This document shows, piece after piece, positions 4,155 through 14,137 of a stretch of DNA of 64,000 nucleotides (within the stretch, counting starts at the first letter, position 1; each line of letters begins with the position of its first letter). Source of the DNA: Streptacidiphilus melanogenes (GTDB taxonomy: Bacteria > Actinomycetota > Actinomycetes > Streptomycetales > Streptomycetaceae); contig NZ_BBPP01000044.1 of assembly GCF_000787835.1 (NCBI RefSeq), positions 1-64,000 of the forward strand, in the 5' to 3' direction. Both the position numbers and the translations under genes were made by a program. The notes under the pieces are model-generated. The model had not been told where the DNA came from. It made no database searches and was given only the letters and a program-made list of their open reading frames with translations.

Positions 4155-5897
4155 TCAGAGGCGCCGCGGAGCGGCGAGCACCAGTTGTCGGAGGGAATCG
4201 AAGTACGCACAGACGCCGAGCGCGCCGAGGGCGGCGGCACTGGCCTCACGAGCAGGCGTGACGCGGCCCGTGTAGAAGACGACGGACCCCGAGAAGCCGG
4301 CTTCCCGGAAGGTTCCGACCTCGCGGAAGCCGGCCTCGGGATCGCTGCCACGGGCGATGTCGGAGATCAGCAGGTCGGGACGGAGCGACGTGAGCGCGTC
4401 GAGGGCGGCCTCGCGGTCGCCCACGACGGCGACGACCGCGCCCGCGTGCCGTAGCGCGTCGGCCTCGTTGCGGACGGAGTCCGGGTGATCGTCGATCCAG
4501 AGGATGGTCCGTCCCCGCATGGACGCCGGGGCGGCCTGCGGTTGCATCAGGACCGGACGTTGGACCAGGGGGAGCTGGCGCAGCCGACGCAGCAGCTCTT
4601 GGGCGTCCGGCAGCGCGGTGAGGTCCGTGACCAGCGAGGTGAACGCGTGGTCGGCGGCGAGGAGCTTGAACTGGGTCGGCGACTGCTGTTCGAGCTGGAC
4701 GAGCGCCCGCTCCCGGGCGTCCTTCGCGCCCGAGAGGGCGGGCTCGTCCACGACGACGTCATGCCGTGAGAACACGCTGCGCAGGACGTCCCAGTCCTTC
4801 GCGGCGAGCTCCTCCGGCTGCCGCAGCAGGCTTCGGGCCCTGCGGTACTCCGAGAACTCCGTCAGGGCGTCCACATCGGTGTCCCGGCCGCCCACCAGGA
4901 CGCGGTAGAAGTCGGGGTAGAGGTACTGCAGCAGGACCGTCCGGATCGCCGCCTCCGGACCGAACTCCTGCCAGAGCGGGTTCAGCCCCGCCTCGATCAC
5001 GAACCCGTTCAGCAGACGCTTGATGTTCCGGGGGTTCCGGCGGGAGTGGTCTGCCAGAAGCCCGACCAACTGGCTGTTCAGCAGGTCCTCGATGCCGCAG
5101 TGCCGGGCACAGCGTCGGACGAAGGCGTCGACGTGCTCACCGGTCGGCGCGTGCAGCTGGAAGTTGGTCTGGAAGATCTTCTCCATGAACGCCGCGCCGG
5201 CCGGTGGCAGGTCCCGCAGGAGCCCTTCGGGACCGAGGACCGATCGGTCGCAGCCCACGACGAACGCCAGCCCCGGAATGTCGAGATAGAGCTTGATCGC
5301 CTCGCAGACGCCGAGCACGGTCTGGGCCGAGCACCGGTCGAGGTCGTCGATGAAGACCACCAGGAGGCGTGAGGCGTCGGACTGCCCGGCGTCGGCCCAG
5401 TCCTTCGCGATCTCCTTGATCGCGTCACGCATCTCGTTGCGCGCCTTGGAGTCCGCCGACAGGGCCTTCCAGAGGTCGTCGACGAGCCCCGACACCCCGA
5501 ACGGTCCCGAGGCGATCAGCAGCAGGGCCCTGAGCAGTTTGAGCGCGGCGCCGTGCTCGGCCGCCCGATGCAGTCCACGCCGGAGCGCGCTGCGGTCGAA
5601 CGTCGTCAGCACCGACTTGATCAGGCCCTCGAGTGAGTCCCCGCCTTTGGCCGTCCAGGCGTTGTACCAGATCGTGTGTACCCCGGGCGCCTTCTCGAGC
5701 CGGTCGCGCATGAGGTGCATGACGCTGCTCTTGCCCATGCCCCAGCCGGCGTCGACGGCCAGGGTGAACGGGGTGGAGGCGCGCGAGGCGAGTATCAGGG
5801 AGGTGAGATGGTCGGCGGCCTGGCGTGAGCCCAATGTGTCGTCGCGGTCCACCGTGACCGGTTCGTCGTTGAGTAACGAGAACTGGCGCGCTGTCAT
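4155..5897 (-). CDS. KAP family P-loop NTPase fused to a C-terminal receiver-like domain
   Basis: A 580-aa two-domain protein. Residues 1 to about 330 are a KAP NTPase: Walker A GWGMGKSS at 51-58, Walker B LLVVFIDDLDRCS at about 178-190, and the RRNPRNIKRLLNGF segment typical of the family. Residues 462-580 form a response-regulator-like fold: paired acids in ILWIDDHPD (469-470), a candidate phosphoacceptor Asp at about 513 (LLISDIARG) and a Thr in VVFYTGR. The conserved Lys-Pro of classical receivers is not seen. KAP proteins are STAND-like NTPases linked to membrane signalling and phage or stress response; the role here is inferred. ATG 5897 is preferred because GAAGGA lies just upstream; an ATG at 5930 is possible. 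Codon 8 is TTA, so bldA control is plausible. Confidence 0.8.
   Translation of the reverse strand: MTARQFSLLNDEPVTVDRDDTLGSRQAADHLTSLILASRASTPFTLAVDAGWGMGKSSVMHLMRDRLEKAPGVHTIWYNAWTAKGGDSLEGLIKSVLTTFDRSALRRGLHRAAEHGAALKLLRALLLIASGPFGVSGLVDDLWKALSADSKARNEMRDAIKEIAKDWADAGQSDASRLLVVFIDDLDRCSAQTVLGVCEAIKLYLDIPGLAFVVGCDRSVLGPEGLLRDLPPAGAAFMEKIFQTNFQLHAPTGEHVDAFVRRCARHCGIEDLLNSQLVGLLADHSRRNPRNIKRLLNGFVIEAGLNPLWQEFGPEAAIRTVLLQYLYPDFYRVLVGGRDTDVDALTEFSEYRRARSLLRQPEELAAKDWDVLRSVFSRHDVVVDEPALSGAKDARERALVQLEQQSPTQFKLLAADHAFTSLVTDLTALPDAQELLRRLRQLPLVQRPVLMQPQAAPASMRGRTILWIDDHPDSVRNEADALRHAGAVVAVVGDREAALDALTSLRPDLLISDIARGSDPEAGFREVGTFREAGFSGSVVFYTGRVTPAREASAAALGALGVCAYFDSLRQLVLAAPRRL
5874..5876 (-). other. 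TTA codon near the start of the KAP NTPase gene
   Basis: Codon 8 of the KAP gene (the first Leu in QFSLLND) reads TTA on the minus strand. In Streptomyces TTA needs the bldA tRNA, so translation may be tied to development. Confidence 0.8.
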
Positions 5898-6026: not shown

Positions 6027-8840
6027 TCACCGGGCGGCCAGCAGTACCTCCAGCGCCTGGGCCGTATCCGGGTGGGTCGCGAGCAGCCGGGCCCCGGAGG
6101 ACGTGGCCGGGGCGGTCGACCAGCTGGGCTCGCAGCCCAGCAGCCGGGCGGCGGCATCGCAGGCGGCCGGATGGGCGGGGAGCAGTGCGAGGCCGCCGGG
6201 ACCAACGGATCGGCTCGACGGTTGGTCCGCCGGAGCCGGAGGCGCCTCGCGCCACGGCGGGACCCACCGGTCCAGGTCGGCCAGTCGGCCGGGGAAGACG
6301 CGGCCGGCCTCGCGGACCAGCAGCGGGGCGAGGTCGCTGCTGTCGCCCCGCAGGGCGGTGATCAAGGTCGGCAGCCAGGGCAGCAGGACCGGGTCGGGGA
6401 GCCGACCGAACGCGTGGGAAACGGCCTCCACCACCACGTCGGCCAGACCGGGGACCGGCTCCAGGGCGTGGACCAGGCCGCTGAGGTAGGTCGGGTAGGA
6501 GGGCAGCACCAGCGGGTTGCCCAGCAGTTCGTCGCAGCGACCGCGGAGTTCGGCGCGGCTCAGGCGGCCGAGCTGGACCTGCGCCGCCCACAGCAGCGCC
6601 ACCCGTGACGGCTCCTCGGGGTGCGACTGGGCGACGGCGAGCTCCAACTGGGTCCGGTCGCAGCCCAGTGAGAGGGCCAGGGACTCCATGCTGAACAGGA
6701 AGCCCAGCATCGCCGCGACCTGACGCACCGTCGCATCCTCGTCGGCGAAGGCGCGCGGCAGCAGGGTGCAGTAGTGCGCGTAGCCGGAGGTGACGAACGC
6801 CTCGATCCACGCGGGCAGCACCGGCACGCTGGTGCGGTAGTACGCGAGCAGCCGGCGCACACGGCGCAGCACCTCCGGGGCGCTGTCGACGGTGCGCTCG
6901 GTGGCCAGCACCTTCAGCGCGTGGGCCCCGAGCTCGTCGGCGAGGCGGGCGGCCGAGCGCAGGTAGAGGGTGGCGTCCTCGACGGCCTCCAGCACCGTGG
7001 CGGTGGTGGCCAGCGGGTGGTAGGCCTTGCGGCGCAGCCGCTGCTCGAGGACCTGCTCGATGCTGATGCCCTCGTAGCCGAGCTCGATCAGGGCCCGTTG
7101 GTTGGTGCCGAGCGCGAGGTCCCAGGACTCCTGGATGGGGCGCTGCCCGAGCACCCGCTCGCCCATGATCGGGCGGGCCGTGCCCGAGGGCATGAGGTAG
7201 CGCAGCATCCACAGCAGGTCGGAGCAGCGCTCCAGCTCGGGCCGGGAGGCGATGTCGAGCAGGGCGCGCTTCACGCCGCGCTGCTGGAGGTTCAGCCCGA
7301 GCGGGGCGAGCCGGTCGTGGACGTCGCGGGCGAGCGGCGGAAGCGCGTCGTAGCCGACGCGGCCGATCCGGTCGCCGCCCATCATGATCTCGACGAGGCG
7401 GCGCACGTCCCGGCGGCCGGGAACGGAGTCCTTCTCGATGCAGGTGACCGCGGCGTCCTGGAAGTCGTACGGGGTGGGCTTGGCCCGGTCCCGCATCCCG
7501 GCCAGCAGGACGGACGTCTCGAACACCGCGATCGCGTCCGCCGTGGAGGCGAGGTAGCCCGCGCGGCGGGCGGCGTGGACGATCCCTACGGACCAGCCCA
7601 GCAGCTCCGCCTCGTCGACGGGATCCACGACGCCGGGACGCTGCAGGAAGCCGGAGAGCCGATCCGAGGGGCGGGCGTCCCGCGGCTGTGAGCCTGCCGC
7701 TGACACGGCGGCGCGGGCTGACTCCTTCGCTGCGGCCTTGCCGCCCTGTCCCTCCAGGCGGAACGGGACCACCCGGGTGCGCTTGAGGTTCTTCGTCCAC
7801 TGCGTCGCCGCGATCGACACCGACCCGGGCGCGAGGCCGAACTGCCCCTCGATCGCGGTGTGGCTGGACGGGATCAGGCCGTACTGCCACTTGGTCGCGG
7901 TCCGCGGCGCGATCTCGAAGCCGCCGGTGCCCGCGGATCCGTGGACGCCGAACTCCTCGACGCGGCTGGCGGCGTGGAACGCCCCGCAGACGTACACCGC
8001 TTCGCCCGGGTCGGTGCCGGTCGCGGCGAGGTGCTCGCGCATCCGCGTCCACATGTACCGCTCGCGGTCCTCGTCCACCCGCATCCGCGTGCTCTCGCCG
8101 GGAGCGAGGCGCCGGAACAGCGAGCCGACGAGGAACATGACCTGGCGGTAGGTGTCGTGGTCGGCCTCGCCGAGCGGCAGCTCGACGTACTGGTGCCACC
8201 ACTCGGACCAGTGCCGCACCCGGCCGTTGCGCAGCAGGTGCTCCTCCAACTCCGCGAAGCGCGGCCGCAGGTCGCCGATCTCGACGCCGACCGCGTCGCC
8301 GTGCAGGGCGCCGTCCTCCTCGTCCGGCTCGGCCTGGCCGGGCGGGGCGGCGCGGCGCGGTTCCCACTGGAAGACGTGGTCCGAGGAGCGGTCCACCAGG
8401 ACGAGCTCGACACCCGGGGTGCTGCGGGCGTAGGCGATGGCCTGGTACTCGGCCGACGCCTCGGTGATCGGCGCGACCACCGACAGCGGCGCCCAGTCGG
8501 CGGGGAAGCCGTCGAGCTCGGTCGCGAAGGCCTGGACCGCGACCGGGAGCGTGCAGTTGTGCAGCTCGGACAGGAGCGGCGCCATGTCCTCGCACAGCTC
8601 AAGGTAGACGACCTTGGGCTGCTTCTCGCGCAGCCGCCTGGCCATGGCGAGCGCGGAGGCGGGGGAGTGGTGGCAGACCGGGAAGATCTCCAGCGGCTCG
8701 CGCACGGCGCGGTCGACGTCGTCGACCAGGCCGAGCAGGATGCCCTGCAGGGCGTCCGGGCCGTCGGCGAACGCCGTTGCAGCGTCCTGGAGTTGGGTGC
8801 GCAGGGCGTCGAACACGCCGGCCGGGGCAATCGGGCTCAT
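6027..8840 (-). CDS. DUF5682-like protein, last gene of the SWIM/VWA/MoxR operon
   Basis: A 937-aa cytoplasmic protein. The N-terminal third holds CHHSPASALAMARRL, VVYLELCED and, further on, VCGAFHAASRVEEFG, which I recognise as the DUF5682 pattern. Its histidines and acidic residues recall the TraB/ChaN/erythromycin-esterase fold, so a metal-dependent or hydrolase-like activity is possible but unproven. The long C-terminal part is helical with many Leu-rich repeats. The start ATG at 8840 overlaps the MoxR stop by four bases. DUF5682 proteins are known to travel with MoxR ATPases and VWA proteins, which is the arrangement here. A longer reading in the same frame upstream is out-of-frame overlap with the MoxR gene and was not used. 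Confidence 0.72.
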   Translation of the reverse strand: MSPIAPAGVFDALRTQLQDAATAFADGPDALQGILLGLVDDVDRAVREPLEIFPVCHHSPASALAMARRLREKQPKVVYLELCEDMAPLLSELHNCTLPVAVQAFATELDGFPADWAPLSVVAPITEASAEYQAIAYARSTPGVELVLVDRSSDHVFQWEPRRAAPPGQAEPDEEDGALHGDAVGVEIGDLRPRFAELEEHLLRNGRVRHWSEWWHQYVELPLGEADHDTYRQVMFLVGSLFRRLAPGESTRMRVDEDRERYMWTRMREHLAATGTDPGEAVYVCGAFHAASRVEEFGVHGSAGTGGFEIAPRTATKWQYGLIPSSHTAIEGQFGLAPGSVSIAATQWTKNLKRTRVVPFRLEGQGGKAAAKESARAAVSAAGSQPRDARPSDRLSGFLQRPGVVDPVDEAELLGWSVGIVHAARRAGYLASTADAIAVFETSVLLAGMRDRAKPTPYDFQDAAVTCIEKDSVPGRRDVRRLVEIMMGGDRIGRVGYDALPPLARDVHDRLAPLGLNLQQRGVKRALLDIASRPELERCSDLLWMLRYLMPSGTARPIMGERVLGQRPIQESWDLALGTNQRALIELGYEGISIEQVLEQRLRRKAYHPLATTATVLEAVEDATLYLRSAARLADELGAHALKVLATERTVDSAPEVLRRVRRLLAYYRTSVPVLPAWIEAFVTSGYAHYCTLLPRAFADEDATVRQVAAMLGFLFSMESLALSLGCDRTQLELAVAQSHPEEPSRVALLWAAQVQLGRLSRAELRGRCDELLGNPLVLPSYPTYLSGLVHALEPVPGLADVVVEAVSHAFGRLPDPVLLPWLPTLITALRGDSSDLAPLLVREAGRVFPGRLADLDRWVPPWREAPPAPADQPSSRSVGPGGLALLPAHPAACDAAARLLGCEPSWSTAPATSSGARLLATHPDTAQALEVLLAAR

Positions 8841-9955
8841 GCGAGGGCCTTCAGTGCGGCCTGGCCGCCCTGGAGGAACTGCGTCCACTCCCCGCTGTTC
8901 TCCCCGGCGTTCTCGGTGCGCGGCGCGACCACGCCGTGCAGGTACTTGTTGAGGATGGGCGTGTCCTCGTCCCGCCGGGCCAGGGAGCCGACGAGGGAGG
9001 AGGCGAGCGCGTCCGCCGTGAGGGTCTGCCGGCCGAAGAAGTTGGAGTGCAGGATCGCGTCCTCCAGGACGCCGATCTGCTCGGCGCTGGACAGGGCCGA
9101 CTCCAGCCGCTCGTCGTCGCTCCCAGCGGCGGCGGAGGCCTCGCGCAGGTCGGCGAAGGACTGGAGCAGCACGTCCAGCAGGGTCGGCGGGACGTCCAGG
9201 GTGATCTGGTGACGCCGCAGCAGCTCCTCGGTGCGGAAGCGCACGATCTCCGCCTCGCTCCTGCGGTTGGTGACGACCGGGATGCGGACGAAGTTGAACC
9301 GGCGCTTGAGTGCGGAGGACAGGTCGTTGACGCCGCGGTCGCGGCTGTTGGCGGTGGCGATGACGGAGAAGCCGGGCCGCGCGAAGACGGTGCCGTTCTC
9401 GTCGAGCTCGGGCACGGAGATGTACTTCTCCGAAAGGATCGAGATCAGGGCGTCCTGCACGTCGCTGGTGGCGCGGGTCAGCTCCTCGAAGCGGCCGATC
9501 GCGCCGGCCTCCATCGCGGTCATGATCGGGGAGGGGATCATCGACTCGCGCGACTGGCCCTGCGCGATGACCATCGACACGTTCCACGAGTACTTGATGT
9601 GGTCCTCGGTGGTCCCGGCGGTGCCCTGGACGACGAGCGTCGAGTTGCGGCAGACGGCCGCCGAGAGCAGCTCCGCGAGCCAGGACTTGCCGGTGCCCGG
9701 ATCGCCGATCAGCAGCAGGCCGCGGTCGGAGGCGAGGGTGACGATGGCGCGCTCGACGATGGCGGCGTCGCCGAACCACTTCTGGTCGACCTTGCGGTCC
9801 AGTTGGTCGCCCGGCTGGGAGCCGAGAACGAAGGTGCGGATCATCTTCGGCGACAGCCGCCAGGTGAACGGCTTGGTCCCGGTGTCCACGGACTCCAGCC
9901 AGGCCAGCTCGTCGGCGTACTTGATCTCGGCGGGGGCGCGCAGCAGGTCGGACAT
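8837..9955 (-). CDS. MoxR-type AAA+ ATPase
   Basis: A 372-aa AAA+ ATPase of the MoxR/RavA kind, which act as chaperone-like remodelers working with VWA-domain partners. Walker A is GDPGTGKSW near residue 85, and a Walker B-like GRFEELTRA follows. Sensor and arginine-finger regions appear as VIATANSRDRG and SSALKRRFNF. The gene lies 25 bases after the VWA gene and overlaps the DUF5682-like gene (ATGA), so all belong to one transcript. Substrates are not predictable from sequence. Confidence 0.85.
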   Translation of the reverse strand: MSDLLRAPAEIKYADELAWLESVDTGTKPFTWRLSPKMIRTFVLGSQPGDQLDRKVDQKWFGDAAIVERAIVTLASDRGLLLIGDPGTGKSWLAELLSAAVCRNSTLVVQGTAGTTEDHIKYSWNVSMVIAQGQSRESMIPSPIMTAMEAGAIGRFEELTRATSDVQDALISILSEKYISVPELDENGTVFARPGFSVIATANSRDRGVNDLSSALKRRFNFVRIPVVTNRRSEAEIVRFRTEELLRRHQITLDVPPTLLDVLLQSFADLREASAAAGSDDERLESALSSAEQIGVLEDAILHSNFFGRQTLTADALASSLVGSLARRDEDTPILNKYLHGVVAPRTENAGENSGEWTQFLQGGQAALKALA

Positions 9956-9980
9956 GTGCGGGTGTGGCCTTTCTGGAGGT

Positions 9981-11360
9981 CTAGGCGAGGAAGGTCTTGA
10001 GCTCGTGGACGAGCTTGCGGATGTGACCGGAGAGCACCGGTGTGCCCAGGTCCTTGAAGCGGTCCTTGAACCAGGGGTTGACGCTGCCGCGGCCGGCGCT
10101 GGTGACCGAGCCGACGGGGATGAACTTGGCGCCGGAGCGGTGGATCGCCGTCATGCTCGCGAAGAGCGGCTCGCAGCGGGACTCGTAGAAGTCGCTGATC
10201 CACACCACGACGGTGTTGCGCGGATCGGTGATCATCGGTTGGACCAGGGTCATCGCGACCGTGCCGTCGGTCCCGCCGCCCAGCTTGGTGCGCAGCAGCG
10301 TCTCGAAGGGGTCGTGCACCCACGGGGTCAGGTCGAGCGCCTGGGTGTCGTAGGCGACGAGATGCACCTGCACCCTCGGCAGGCCCGCGAAGATCGAGGC
10401 GAGGATGGTGCAGTTGACCATCGAGTCGACCATCGAACCGGACTGGTCGACGACCACGATCAGGTCCTGCGGCGTGGTCCTGCGGGCGGTGTGGCGGTAG
10501 TAGAGCTGGTCGACGTAGAGGCGTTCCCCGTCCGGGTCCCAGTTGGGCAGGTTCTTCCAGACGGTGCGCTTCAGGTCGAGGTTGCGGAAGGTCCGCTTCG
10601 GTGGCACCGAGCGGTCCAGCTCGCCGACGCTCGCCTTCGCCACCTGGGTGCGCAGCACCTCGGCGACCTCGTCGACGAACCGGCGGATCAGGCGCTTGGC
10701 GTTGGCCAGCGCCACGCCGTCGAGGTTGCCCTTGTCGCGCAGCAGCTGCTCGATCAGCGACATGCTCGGCGTGAGCTGCCCGGCCAGCTTGTTGTCGGCC
10801 AGCAGCTCGCGCAGCCGCATGCGCTTGACGAGGTCGGCCTCGATGTCGGCGAGCTCAGGGCCGAGGCCGGGACCCGTGCCGGGACGGGCGGCACGCAGCT
10901 GCCCGGGATCGCAGCCGAGCGCGCGTTCCAGCCACCCGGCGTCGGACTGCCAGCGCGCCAGCTGACCGGCCGTCACCTCACCGCGGCCGGTGGCGAAGGT
11001 GTTCAGCAGCAGCTTGGAGACCAGCGCCGCGCGCCGTACCTCGGCGGCCCGGTCCCGCACGTCGCCCGGCTCGGGGGCGGGGACCATCACCGAGTCGAAC
11101 TCGGCCGCCAGCTGCGGGTGACGCTGCACGATGGCGTCGATCGACGCCTGCGGATCCAGCAGCGCGGCGGGCAGGCCCAGAGCCTCGGTGACCTCCAGCG
11201 AGGCGGTCTCCAGTGCGGGCTGCTCCTCGGGGTCGAACAGGCGGGCCAGCAGCCGCCAGTACAGGACCTGACGGCGGTTCGCCTCCGGGTCGGGCAGGGC
11301 GACGTCGCATGCGGTGATGTCGGGTGCGGTGACGTCGGGCACGGTGGTGGGGTCGGTCAT
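9981..11360 (-). CDS. VWA-domain protein, MoxR partner
   Basis: A 459-aa protein with a mostly helical N-terminal half and a von Willebrand factor A domain in the C-terminal half. The MIDAS metal site is complete: VVVDQSGSM supplies DxSxS, GGGTDGT supplies the conserved Thr, and VVWISDF supplies the later Asp. Such proteins bind partner proteins through a metal ion and pair with MoxR ATPases. The start ATG 11360 overlaps the preceding stop by four bases. No signal peptide or membrane segment is visible, so it should act in the cytoplasm. Confidence 0.85.
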   Translation of the reverse strand: MTDPTTVPDVTAPDITACDVALPDPEANRRQVLYWRLLARLFDPEEQPALETASLEVTEALGLPAALLDPQASIDAIVQRHPQLAAEFDSVMVPAPEPGDVRDRAAEVRRAALVSKLLLNTFATGRGEVTAGQLARWQSDAGWLERALGCDPGQLRAARPGTGPGLGPELADIEADLVKRMRLRELLADNKLAGQLTPSMSLIEQLLRDKGNLDGVALANAKRLIRRFVDEVAEVLRTQVAKASVGELDRSVPPKRTFRNLDLKRTVWKNLPNWDPDGERLYVDQLYYRHTARRTTPQDLIVVVDQSGSMVDSMVNCTILASIFAGLPRVQVHLVAYDTQALDLTPWVHDPFETLLRTKLGGGTDGTVAMTLVQPMITDPRNTVVVWISDFYESRCEPLFASMTAIHRSGAKFIPVGSVTSAGRGSVNPWFKDRFKDLGTPVLSGHIRKLVHELKTFLA

Positions 11361-12760
11361 GAGCGCAGCAGCCTTCCCGCGCGTTCGCGCAGCACCGTCA
11401 CGGTGTCGGTGGCCGCCTTCTCCGCCTTGGCGCCGCTCTTGTCGGCCGTCCCACCGGCCCAGGCTCCGGCCTGCACCACGGCGGTCCGGCTCTTCGCGGC
11501 GCTCTGAACGGCCAGCGGCTGCAGCAGGAATCGGCCGGCGTCCCAGCGCAGCAGCCCGATGCAGGCACGGGAACCAGCCACCGCCTGGGCCGTGAGGGGT
11601 GAGGCCGCGGGCAGTCGGCCGGTGTCCACCGCGAGCCGCTCGCCGCCGACCACGAAGGCGACCTCGTCGCCGCTGCGGTCGACGGTGTAGCCCTCGACGA
11701 GGACCGGCTCCGCGATCCGGGCCGGATGGCGGTCCAGCGGGGCGGTCGCGCCGGCGCGAACGGTCGGCAGGGCGACGCGCGCGGTGGTGAACACGTCCGC
11801 GCTCTCGTCGACGCGGGTGCGCTCCTCGCTCCAGAGCAGATCCCCCTCGTCGGTGACGGGCATGCCGGTCAGTTCCATCGCGTGGCCCTCCCCGGCCGCG
11901 GCCAGCAGCGACAGATGCGGTCGCAGCAGCTGCCACACCCCCGCGCCGACCACCGTGTCGGGCTTCGGCGCGGACACCGAGGCCCGCACCAGCCGCGCCG
12001 GGCCGCCGTCCGCGGGCTCGAACACCGCGTGGACCTGGGCGTGCACGGCCGTCGCATGCTCGTGCAGATCCACGCCGAGCGGCAGCAGGCGCCCGGTGAG
12101 CGCCGCCGTCTCGGCTCCTGCTCCGGCCCCGGTGACGGCGCCGGGCTGGGTCAGCAGCATCCCGCGCGCCCACAGGTCGGCCCAGCGGCGCAGCGGGATC
12201 CGGCCGAGCGTCCGGCCGGGACAGGACGCGGCGAGCTCGGCGGCGAAGCCGTCGAGCAGCACCGCGAGCCGCCGCAGCTCGGGGGCGGGGAGCAGGGCGG
12301 ACACGACCTGGGCGGCCCCGGCAGCCAGCTCGTGGTCCAGGCCGCGCCAGCCGGCGCGGGCCACGTCGCACAGCCACGCCCGCGCGGAGGCCAGCAGGTT
12401 CGCCGGCAGGGGCGCGCCCGGCTCGAACGGCGGCGTCGCCTCGCGGGGACGCCCCGTCGCCTCGTCGACCCGCGCCACCACGGCGTCGTGGACCGCACCG
12501 AACAGCGCGGTGCGACCGGCGGCGAGCGCGAGGAGGTGCTCCTCGCCCGCCACCCCGGCCGCCGCCTTCTCGGCCGCCTCGGCGACCAGCGCGGCGATCG
12601 GCGAACCGGCGACCGCGTTTGCCAGCGCGGTCAGCCCCGCGGCCTGGGCCGGCTGCGGACGCAGCAACCCGCCCGCGAGGACCTGGTCGAACGCGTCGAC
12701 GGCGGCCAGCGCCTCGTCGAGGCCGGGAAGCTCCCCGGTCAGCAGGTCGGCCCGCATCAT
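11357..12760 (-). CDS. Uncharacterised protein, second gene of the SWIM/VWA/MoxR operon
   Basis: A 467-aa protein that I cannot assign to a family with confidence. It is rich in Ala and Leu and probably helical in the first 230 residues, then has a mixed alpha/beta C-terminal half (for example LVRASVSAPKPDTVVGAGVW). No catalytic motif, signal peptide or membrane helix is evident. The ATG at 12760 overlaps the SWIM stop and the gene's own stop overlaps the VWA start, so its product is probably made in fixed ratio with both. DUF5691-like proteins occupy this slot in related operons of other bacteria; I do not claim homology. Confidence 0.75.
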   Translation of the reverse strand: MMRADLLTGELPGLDEALAAVDAFDQVLAGGLLRPQPAQAAGLTALANAVAGSPIAALVAEAAEKAAAGVAGEEHLLALAAGRTALFGAVHDAVVARVDEATGRPREATPPFEPGAPLPANLLASARAWLCDVARAGWRGLDHELAAGAAQVVSALLPAPELRRLAVLLDGFAAELAASCPGRTLGRIPLRRWADLWARGMLLTQPGAVTGAGAGAETAALTGRLLPLGVDLHEHATAVHAQVHAVFEPADGGPARLVRASVSAPKPDTVVGAGVWQLLRPHLSLLAAAGEGHAMELTGMPVTDEGDLLWSEERTRVDESADVFTTARVALPTVRAGATAPLDRHPARIAEPVLVEGYTVDRSGDEVAFVVGGERLAVDTGRLPAASPLTAQAVAGSRACIGLLRWDAGRFLLQPLAVQSAAKSRTAVVQAGAWAGGTADKSGAKAEKAATDTVTVLRERAGRLLRS

Positions 12761-13272
12761 GCCACCGCCCCGGCCGTGGGGAACCAGTGCATCTCGGGCA
12801 GCGGCGCGGTGGTCGCGGGCAGCTCCAGGTAGGCCAGATGACGCAGGAAGCGCGCGAAGACCTGCCCTGTGACGGCCTGTGCGTCGGCCGCCTGCTGCGG
12901 ACGAGCGGCGCTCATCGCTGCGGCGAGCTGCTGCGCCGTCGGAGCCGCGTCGCCGTCGGCGGTGTCCGTCTGCAGGTAGCGGGCGACACGCGCACCGCCG
13001 TACTGGAGCACCGCCTCGCCGACCATCGCGCCGATGTGGTTGCAGAACCCGCCGCGAGCCCCGCCGCAGGGGCGGTTGTTGTTGGTCCGGCACGCGAAGG
13101 CGAAGTCGCCGGAGGCGACGGACGACACGTACACCCGTGAGACGTCCGAGCCGCTGGACACCACGCCCTGCAACCGGCCGGCGGCGAGTTCGACGAACGG
13201 GACCTTCGCGAGCTTGCGCGGTCGCGCGGTCGGTACCACGCGCACCAGGCTCGACTCCTCCCACATGGGCAA
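12757..13272 (-). CDS. SWIM zinc-finger-like protein, first gene of the MoxR/VWA operon
   Basis: A 171-aa protein. Residues 55-85 contain FAFAC, then NRPCGG, then FCNHIGAM: a Cys...Cys...Cys-x-His arrangement that matches a SWIM zinc finger (CxCxnCxH) with a changed spacing of the first two cysteines. SWIM domains bind DNA or proteins. The start is set at TTG 13272 because GAGGAGG (13280-13286) is exactly 7 bases before it, while ATG 13266 would be 13 bases away. It leads a five-gene operon with overlapping stops and starts. Confidence 0.75.
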   Translation of the reverse strand: MPMWEESSLVRVVPTARPRKLAKVPFVELAAGRLQGVVSSGSDVSRVYVSSVASGDFAFACRTNNNRPCGGARGGFCNHIGAMVGEAVLQYGGARVARYLQTDTADGDAAPTAQQLAAAMSAARPQQAADAQAVTGQVFARFLRHLAYLELPATTAPLPEMHWFPTAGAVA

Positions 13273-13468
13273 GGCGCAGCCTCCTCAAGGCAGATAGGGG
13301 GATCGTCACGCCAGAGCGGCGGAACACGATCAACCTAGCCGGGAGGACTGACAACACCCGGAGCCGCGCCTGCTCCCCGCTCCTGCGGAGTGGCAGCTCT
13401 GTTCTCAACTACTCGATACCGTTGGGCCTATGACGGGCAGTGGCTACCATGACGGCCAGGGGGAAGGT

Positions 13469-14137
13469 ATGCCGGAGAGTAGCGGAGAACCAGGCTCGCC
13501 CTGGTCCGGGTGGAACGAAGGAGACCCGGCCTGGTCCGGGCGGAACGTACCGCAGCAGCAGTACGTGCAAGCGGCCCCCGGTTCCGCCGTGTACCAGGTC
13601 TCGGGTGATCTGCACCTGCAGGGAAGGCCGCCGGCTCCAGGCGGCAGCGAGGCCGACGTCAACCAAATGATCATGTCCCGCTTCATGAACCAGGCGCTGA
13701 GTCAAGCCGAGACGACCTTTCGGCTGAGCGCGATCTTCATGTCGGCCGGGGCGGTCATCCTGCTGGCCGGGGGCGTGCTGGCGTTGTTACGCCACGCCGC
13801 CTCGGCCGGTGATGCCGCTGCTTTGATGACGAGCTTGGCGGGCGTCCTCATCGGCACCTGCGGCGGAGCCTTTGCCGTGCATGCCAACCGTGCACGCAGG
13901 CACCTCACAGAGCAGGTAGCCGCGGTTCGTGACGACATGAAAGCGGAGCGCGCGCACGCCAGGGAGGACACGATGCGTAAGCAGGCACTCAGCCTGATCG
14001 AGAGCATTCCGGATCCTGCTGTGCGGCAGCACCTCACGACCGTGGTCATGATGAATGCCCTGGGCCTGGCTGCTTCGCCAAGCCTGGGCAAGGACAGCAC
14101 GCCGAGCCTCACGGCGGGCGATGGAGCCGACGAATGA
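13469..14137 (+). CDS. Two-helix membrane protein, TRADD-N-associated membrane domain type
   Basis: A 222-aa protein. The first 65 residues are Gly/Pro-rich and include the motif GSAVYQVSGDLHLQ, seen in many actinobacterial signalling and conflict proteins. Two membrane helices follow (IFMSAGAVILLAGGVLALL and SLAGVLIGTCGGAFAVHA), then a charged coiled-coil-like C-terminus. The layout matches proteins with the TRADD-N-associated membrane domain, predicted to work in NTP-dependent conflict systems. ATG 13469 is preferred since AGGGGG stands 5 bases before it; ATG 13430 would be leaderless. It diverges from the SWIM operon, so the two probably share a control region. A TTA codon lies at 13787. 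Confidence 0.72.
   Translation: MPESSGEPGSPWSGWNEGDPAWSGRNVPQQQYVQAAPGSAVYQVSGDLHLQGRPPAPGGSEADVNQMIMSRFMNQALSQAETTFRLSAIFMSAGAVILLAGGVLALLRHAASAGDAAALMTSLAGVLIGTCGGAFAVHANRARRHLTEQVAAVRDDMKAERAHAREDTMRKQALSLIESIPDPAVRQHLTTVVMMNALGLAASPSLGKDSTPSLTAGDGADE
13787..13789 (+). other. TTA codon in the TRADD-N-type membrane protein gene
   Basis: The codon encodes the second Leu of LALLRH, in the frame that starts at 13469. TTA is rare in this genome type and marks possible bldA dependence. Confidence 0.8.

What the first reader, a model, noticed from the sequence alone, without database searches (positions are those of the whole stretch)
6027..13272. Five-gene SWIM, unknown, VWA, MoxR, DUF5682-like operon with tight coupling
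Four-base stop/start overlaps join three of the four junctions, implying a fixed stoichiometry. The pair MoxR and VWA is a known remodelling machine; the SWIM zinc finger could supply nucleic-acid or protein recognition and the DUF5682-like protein an effector activity. Second gene unassigned.
Basis: partly seen in the sequence, partly recalled or inferred. Interest (0 to 1): 0.68.

Follow-up and report, generated by a model that had tools for sequence, protein, structure and literature searches.

The report
Conserved ATP-driven module with split SWIM protein
A fixed block of five neighbouring genes, found across many soil actinobacteria, probably builds one ATP-powered protein machine, a distant cousin of an unstudied E. 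coli gene set (yehLMPQ), in which one partner protein comes split into two genes.

Summary
The five genes are real and tightly coupled: three 4-base ATGA overlaps and one 25-base gap before MoxR. The module is conserved. In 99 further distinct loci all five genes stand in the same order wherever the record is long enough (19 of 20 and 79 of 80; both misses end at a record edge). Among 296 actinomycete genomes, all 21 with the DUF5682-like gene also have gene 2. Its modelled C-terminal half resembles paired OB folds. MoxR, VWA and DUF5682-like are homologues of E. coli YehL, YehP and YehM. So this is a divergent variant of the YehL-type MoxR system with a split, non-standard SWIM protein and its own gene order. 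DUF5682 keeps invariant His-His, Glu, Asp and Gly-x-x-His residues and may be a TIKI-like hydrolase (weak evidence). Function is untested; flanking genes show no clear defence island.

The parts
12757..13272 (-). SWIM-like zinc-finger protein, 169 aa from ATG 13266 (171 aa from TTG 13272); N-terminal half of the split SWIM protein
   Evidence: motif C-x7-C-x7-C-x-H in 78 of 79 loci, five residues in the second gap in 1; fused to gene 2 in 18 of 79 and 3 of 20 loci
11357..12760 (-). gene 2, 467 aa: helical N-terminal region and beta C-terminal region resembling tandem OB folds; C-terminal part of the split SWIM protein
   Evidence: no Pfam, PADLOC or NCBIfam match
9981..11360 (-). VWA (CoxE-like) protein, 459 aa, homologue of YehP
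   Evidence: Pfam PF05762 102 bits; hhalign to YehP family 100%; MIDAS D-x-S-G-S
9956..9980 (-). 25-base gap before MoxR, the only junction without overlap
   Evidence: gap of 0-200 bases in 78 of 80 loci
8837..9955 (-). MoxR AAA+ ATPase of the YehL subfamily, 372 aa
   Evidence: AAA_5 129 bits; alignment with YehL and three other types; Walker A, sensor 1 and Arg-finger motifs 80 of 80 (motif names recalled)
6027..8840 (-). DUF5682-like protein (YehM homologue), 937 aa: N-terminal domain with H57, H58, E81, D150, H289; C-terminal helical repeat
   Evidence: PF18934 89.5 bits; hhalign 98.7-99.7% to YehM/DUF5682 families; invariant residues across types; model

Best explanation
SHOWN: the five genes are one conserved operon-like module of the YehL kind. 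It encodes a YehL-subfamily MoxR ATPase, its VWA partner, a divergent DUF5682/YehM protein, and a SWIM-like protein split into two overlapping genes (finger part; helical plus probable tandem-OB part). INFERRED: the products act together. The split SWIM-OB protein binds the trigger, most likely nucleic acid. The VWA protein links it to the MoxR hexamer. ATP hydrolysis then remodels DUF5682, whose conserved His/Glu/Asp site (TIKI-like) performs a hydrolytic or metal-dependent reaction, kept off until the signal arrives. The most likely role is an accessory stress or conflict response, not housekeeping. Identity of the module as a YehL-type variant: about 0.9. The mechanism as a whole: 0.45 or less.
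For: Order kept in all loci with room for it: 19 of 20 and 79 of 80, the two misses being record ends. Genomes with gene 2 and with the DUF5682-like gene coincide: 21 of 21, plus one cut by a contig end, among 296. SWIM-gene 2 fused in 21 of 100 distinct loci, at least 11 state changes on a tree. DUF5682-VWA fusion in the related type B, 6 of 6 loci. MoxR, VWA and DUF5682 homology to YehL/P/M. H, H, E, D and GxxH invariant in 19 N-terminal domains of three types and in 79-80 of 80 loci. In the model of a natural fusion all 36 VIA rows that start at residues 390-395 are OB-fold proteins (fold names recalled), most of them DNA binders, Z 4.7-5.8. TIKI families ChaN and TraB are weak Pfam hits. 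Presence is patchy (22 of 296 genomes) and neighbours differ from locus to locus (234 clusters among 312 flanking proteins).
Against: No interaction or function data. The OB assignment rests on Z below 6, which the tool calls middling, and on a model with mean pLDDT 73. The TIKI assignment is weak: a PDB profile search found none, hhalign against two TraB proteins found nothing, and the DUF5682 model is poor in that domain (pLDDT mostly under 50). Gene 2 has no significant profile match to canonical SWIM proteins. Flanking genes are not visibly rich in defence genes, and the five proteins have only weak, generic PADLOC matches.
Confidence: 0.45

Rival explanations
1. Cofactor-insertion chaperone: MoxR and VWA work like NorQ-NorD and load a metal into the His/Glu/Asp site of DUF5682, which is then a constitutive metalloenzyme; the SWIM-OB protein is a scaffold.
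For: Known MoxR-VWA pairs do this (NorQD abstract PMC13036017, seen in the listing); DUF5682 has an invariant polar site.
Against: Does not explain a separate zinc finger plus OB-like protein in every locus; no metal site was modelled with confidence.
Confidence: 0.27
2. Anti-phage or conflict system of the MoxR-vWA ternary kind, with DUF5682 as the third component and effector.
For: Same core pair as the ternary systems of PMC7159879 (passages); patchy accessory distribution; neighbouring KAP ATPase and TRADD-associated TM protein in this window.
Against: SWIM and DUF5682 are not mentioned in that paper; no clear run of defence genes among 136 flanking proteins; no match of the DUF5682-like protein in phages or of gene 2 in viral contigs; KAP and TM genes are absent beside the 20 and 80 other loci tested.
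Confidence: 0.25
3. Gene 2 is the counterpart of DUF5691 (the second gene of the canonical SWIM-DUF5691-MoxR-DUF5682-VWA set), not a part of the SWIM protein.
For: Same position after SWIM; SWIM and DUF5691 also share one frame in L099 and, by length only, perhaps in L096.
Against: No profile similarity (hhalign probability 0.1%; best domain score 5.3 bits); a weak collinear block ties gene 2 to the C-terminus of YehQ instead, but that too is not significant.
Confidence: 0.25
4. Genes merely co-transcribed, no common machine.
For: No biochemical data.
Against: Order unbroken over about 100 loci with changing neighbours, recurrent fusions.
Confidence: 0.04

Closest known systems
E. coli yehL-yehM-yehP-yehQ (with yehI, DUF4132, upstream)
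   Same: MoxR of the YehL subfamily, DUF5682, VWA and SWIM protein in one cluster; hhalign 99.7% and 100% to the families of YehM and YehP
   Different: Order MoxR-DUF5682-VWA-SWIM and one intact SWIM protein of 614 aa with a CxC...CxH finger; here SWIM-gene 2-VWA-MoxR-DUF5682, SWIM split and finger spacing changed, no DUF4132 gene next to it
Canonical SWIM-DUF5691-MoxR-DUF5682-VWA set (own genome contig C91; Deinococcus taeanensis plasmid)
   Same: MoxR 42% and VWA 29% identical to the C91 copy, DUF5682 by profile; gene set in Deinococcus
   Different: Has DUF5691; its DUF5682 scores about 780-1005 bits against about 40-124 for the window type. All 28 genomes of the window's family in the sample have a DUF5682 match above 660 bits, only 9 of 28 have the window type
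MoxR-VWA-centric ternary conflict systems (VMAP, iSTAND, FtsH)
   Same: MoxR plus VWA core with a third component (PMC7159879, passages)
   Different: DUF5682 and SWIM are not named there
RavA-ViaA and NorQ-NorD
   Same: MoxR ATPase with VWA partner (PMC3893208 passages; listing)
   Different: Other MoxR subfamilies; no SWIM or DUF5682 partner that I know of (recalled)

Membership tests
YehL subfamily of MoxR ATPases | Sequence relationship of the ATPase to YehL | tested here: met
   Full-length alignment with YehL and three related types; shared R-x-E-E-(L/I/V)-T-R in 21 of 21 relatives and R-F-E-E-L-T-R in 79 of 80 variant loci. Other MoxR subfamilies were not put in the alignment
YehL subfamily of MoxR ATPases | VWA gene next to the ATPase gene | tested here: met
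   Adjacent in the window and in the loci
DUF5682 (PF18934) | Score above the curated cut-off of 26 bits | tested here: inconclusive
   89.5 bits in the genome search, yet no match by hmmscan at E 1; hhalign 98.7-99.7%; NCBI names a 77% relative 'DUF5682 family protein'
SWIM zinc finger | CxCx(n)CxH motif and Pfam match | tested here: not met
   C-x7-C-x7-C-x-H in 78 of 79 loci, five residues in the second gap in 1; strict motif in 0 of 79; no Pfam match. First Cys and the CxH align with canonical SWIM, so it is SWIM-like only
MoxR-VWA ternary conflict system | VMAP, iSTAND or FtsH third component | tested here: not met
   No such Pfam match among the five proteins
MoxR-VWA ternary conflict system | Defence or conflict phenotype | not testable with these tools
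   Needs a plaque or survival assay
TIKI superfamily hydrolases | Catalytic 2His/2Glu in a parallel beta core | tested here: inconclusive
   H57/H58, E81, E131/E260, H289 invariant; Pfam ChaN in 3 and TraB in 2 of 19 members, best E 0.0089 and 0.2; no PDB profile match, no hhalign match, fold model poor. Definition from PMC6254334 passages
OB-fold nucleic-acid-binding proteins | Tandem OB barrels in gene 2 | tested here: inconclusive
   Coherent but middling VIA matches (Z 4.7-5.8); Foldseek best E 0.059

The most novel reading that the evidence does not exclude
A nucleic-acid-triggered, ATP-gated TIKI-type hydrolase: the split SWIM/tandem-OB protein senses (single-stranded) nucleic acid, MoxR-VWA turns the signal into a shape change, and DUF5682 cleaves or modifies a cellular target. 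It would be a distinct branch of the YehL-type systems and a class of MoxR-VWA response system not described under these names in the papers found here.
Probability: 0.25. Interest if true: 0.72.

Novelty: new variant of a known kind. Interest (0 to 1): 0.45.

Why it matters
YehL-type MoxR systems are widespread, including in E. coli K-12, yet in my searches their genes appear almost only in gene lists and overviews. This variant shows which parts are obligatory, that the SWIM-like protein and gene 2 behave as one unit, and which residues of DUF5682 to mutate. That makes the function of yehLMPQ directly testable in a laboratory strain.

Tried and rejected
Gene 2 as DUF5691: not favoured, for lack of profile similarity. 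Gene 2 as a clear homologue of the canonical SWIM C-terminus by sequence: not shown; only a weak collinear block to YehQ (53 columns, hhalign probability 0.8%; domain scores 4.1-7.4 bits). The two accepted SWIM families barely match each other either (probability 3.8%).

Defence island: 136 flanking proteins (of 312 called) against PADLOC gave scattered hits, most of them methyltransferases; Pfam gave ordinary regulators and enzymes. No control set of random genes was scanned, so this is no measured depletion. Gene calls in flanks used a simple GC3 rule and include some wrong frames.

KAP ATPase (4155-5897) and TM protein (13430-14137) as parts of the system: rejected, absent from the 20 and 80 loci. 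Foreign composition: GC3 of the five genes is 0.905-0.976 against a mean of 0.942 for 19 window genes, so no sign of recent import; direct repeats and tRNA genes gave no element borders.

Phages and viral contigs: no match. TraB/ChaN members for a profile comparison are almost absent from the phylum and one was found on plasmids; a comparison with two TraB proteins was negative. PDB profile searches with gene 2 and DUF5682 found nothing meaningful. Fold search with the DUF5682 model gave only helical-repeat look-alikes. In one search no other fold family stood out for the beta part; absence there excludes nothing.

Rows dropped: three gene-2 matches (G013, G137, G280; E 3e-4 to 5e-4) and two DUF5682-like matches (G079, G251; E 4e-4 and 1e-5) were treated as chance or as canonical homologues. 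L119 and L032 are the same locus and counted once. The start of L100's DUF5682 was picked too late by my script, which is why it lacks the HH motif. Fused frames of the SWIM gene were left out of some SWIM-only alignments.
Full report
What is there. Five genes run on the minus strand from 13272 to 6027: a 169-aa SWIM-like protein, gene 2 (467 aa), VWA (459 aa), MoxR (372 aa), DUF5682-like (937 aa). Three junctions are ATGA overlaps, one (before MoxR) is a 25-base gap. Pfam recognises VWA_CoxE and AAA_5; the other three proteins have no meaningful hmmscan match, though the DUF5682 model scores 89.5 bits on the last gene in a more permissive search.

Is it a unit? Gene 2 was sought in 296 genomes of the class: 25 match, 22 of them strongly. 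The DUF5682-like protein matches strongly in 21 of the same 296, all among those 22; the remaining one, G260, has a contig that ends 155 bases after MoxR. I fetched 20 of the 21 strong loci other than the window and the last one: 19 of 20 have all five in order, as has L111. Of these, 79 of 80 are complete and in order; the exception, L123, starts inside gene 2. One locus occurs in both sets. An alignment of gene 2 against 296 genomes of the phylum matched 5, all in the window's own class. Neighbouring genes vary: 312 flanking proteins fall into 234 clusters, and the window's own neighbours (KAP ATPase, TM protein) are absent elsewhere. So the five genes stay together as one module.

Junctions. 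In the 80 loci VWA overlaps gene 2 by 4 bases in 77, DUF5682 overlaps MoxR by 4 in 78, SWIM and gene 2 overlap by 1 base in 60 and are fused in 18, and MoxR stands after a gap of 0-200 bases in 78. Coupling is thus selected, but the one free junction is before MoxR, which would fit an ATPase made in a different amount (inference; MoxR proteins are hexamers, recalled). 'Fixed stoichiometry' is therefore not shown.

Gene 2 belongs to the SWIM-like protein. The two are one reading frame in 3 of 20 loci (L034, L036, L037) and 18 of 79, 21 distinct loci of 100, joined by linkers of differing length and sequence. On a tree of MoxR+VWA+DUF5682 with 100 tips the state changes at least 11 times, against 19.4 on average for shuffled labels: split and fused forms have interconverted repeatedly. 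A natural fusion protein was modelled (mean pLDDT 72.9). Gene 2 has a helical part (about 183-382 of that model) and a beta part (392-605). Foldseek finds nothing significant (best E 0.059). In the VIA second look all 36 rows that begin at 390-395 are proteins I know as OB-fold proteins: HIN-200 domains, RPA, CST, PriB, LEF-3, telomere end-binding protein and a few others (Z 4.7-5.8). Middling scores, but coherent, and most of these proteins bind DNA (recalled). The finger itself is C-x7-C-x7-C-x-H in 78 of 79 loci, with five instead of seven residues in the second gap in 1, and never the standard CxC form.

What the other parts are. MoxR aligns end to end with YehL and with further actinobacterial types; all carry R-x-E-E-(L/I/V)-T-R at the place where I expect the Walker B D-E (Walker B rule recalled). 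YehL is one of seven named MoxR subfamilies (PMC3893208, passages). VWA matches the YehP family (hhalign 100%) and DUF5682-like the YehM family (99.7%) and canonical DUF5682 (98.9%). In 19 N-terminal domains of three types H57, H58, E81, E131, D150, E260 and H289 (window numbering) are among 20 invariant columns. Single members hit ChaN (3 of 19, best E 0.0089) and TraB (2 of 19, best E 0.2, the window protein over residues 56-85) of the TIKI superfamily, whose active members use 2 His and 2 Glu (PMC6254334, abstract and passages). This is a lead only: PDB profile search, hhalign to two TraB proteins and the fold model did not confirm it.

Family picture. DUF5682 occurs in 75 of 296 class genomes. 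Fetched loci fall into four types. A: SWIM, MoxR, DUF5682 and VWA, with DUF5691 seen in 4 of 9 actinobacterial loci (L003 by Pfam; L092, L093, L099 by tblastn; remote copies may be missed) and in Deinococcus. B: MoxR with a DUF5682-VWA fusion (6 of 6 loci). C: DUF4132-MoxR-DUF5682-VWA with SWIM found in 4 of 5, as in E. coli yeh. Fourth, the window type. Type B supports that DUF5682 and VWA act together. Seven of the 22 genomes with the window type (G100, G111, G206, G242, G196, G198, G260) show no other DUF5682 match, so it appears to work without a canonical copy. On the 12 contigs of 7 Mb or more that carry it (G018, G095, G100, G111, G133, G261, L118, L120, L126, L130, L144, L165) it lies in the outer quarter in 11, while type A lies centrally in all five genomes of the window's family that I could place (G018, G057, G133, G261, G277). 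Some of the 12 may be circular, so this only suggests an accessory gene set.

Mechanism. MoxR-VWA pairs are chaperone-like machines that remodel dedicated complexes (PMC3893208 passages; PMC13036017 abstract in the listing). I infer that DUF5682 is the client or effector and the split SWIM-OB protein the sensor. The most likely reading is a signal-gated hydrolase; metal loading of DUF5682 is the main rival, a defence role a third. The flanks give no support for a defence island, and the ternary-system paper names neither SWIM nor DUF5682.

Print. DUF5682 had no occurrence in the rows listed by searches, and DUF5691 none in 55; yehL-Q appear in a genome announcement and in MoxR papers. The library lacks most subscription journals, so this says little about print as a whole.

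Noticed in passing
window 4155-5897 (-): KAP-family P-loop ATPase fused to a C-terminal response-regulator receiver domain, with QatA/PifA-type matches. A nearly full-length relative (51%) exists in 1 other of 148 genomes (G101), which lacks the five-gene module.
   Followed up: partly
window 13430-14137 (+): Divergent gene with a 'Cyanobacterial TRADD-N associated 2-TM' domain (57 bits) and low GC3 (0.787), next to the operon start.
   Followed up: no
L100-L104, L110: A type of DUF5682 system in which DUF5682 and VWA are one protein of 1169-1312 aa.
   Followed up: partly
L099 4929-7748; L096 12451-15702: SWIM and DUF5691 share one frame in L099 (939 aa); a 1083-aa SWIM frame in L096 suggests the same, by length only.
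   Followed up: no
window 6030-8840: Tool disagreement: PF18934 scores 89.5 bits in the genome search but hmmscan lists no match at E 1; annotation pipelines may miss this branch.
   Followed up: partly
L112 (NZ_CP023408.1 29830-37222): The same five genes sit on the 927-kb plasmid p1 of Streptomyces fungicidicus, the first two annotated as hypothetical proteins.
   Followed up: no
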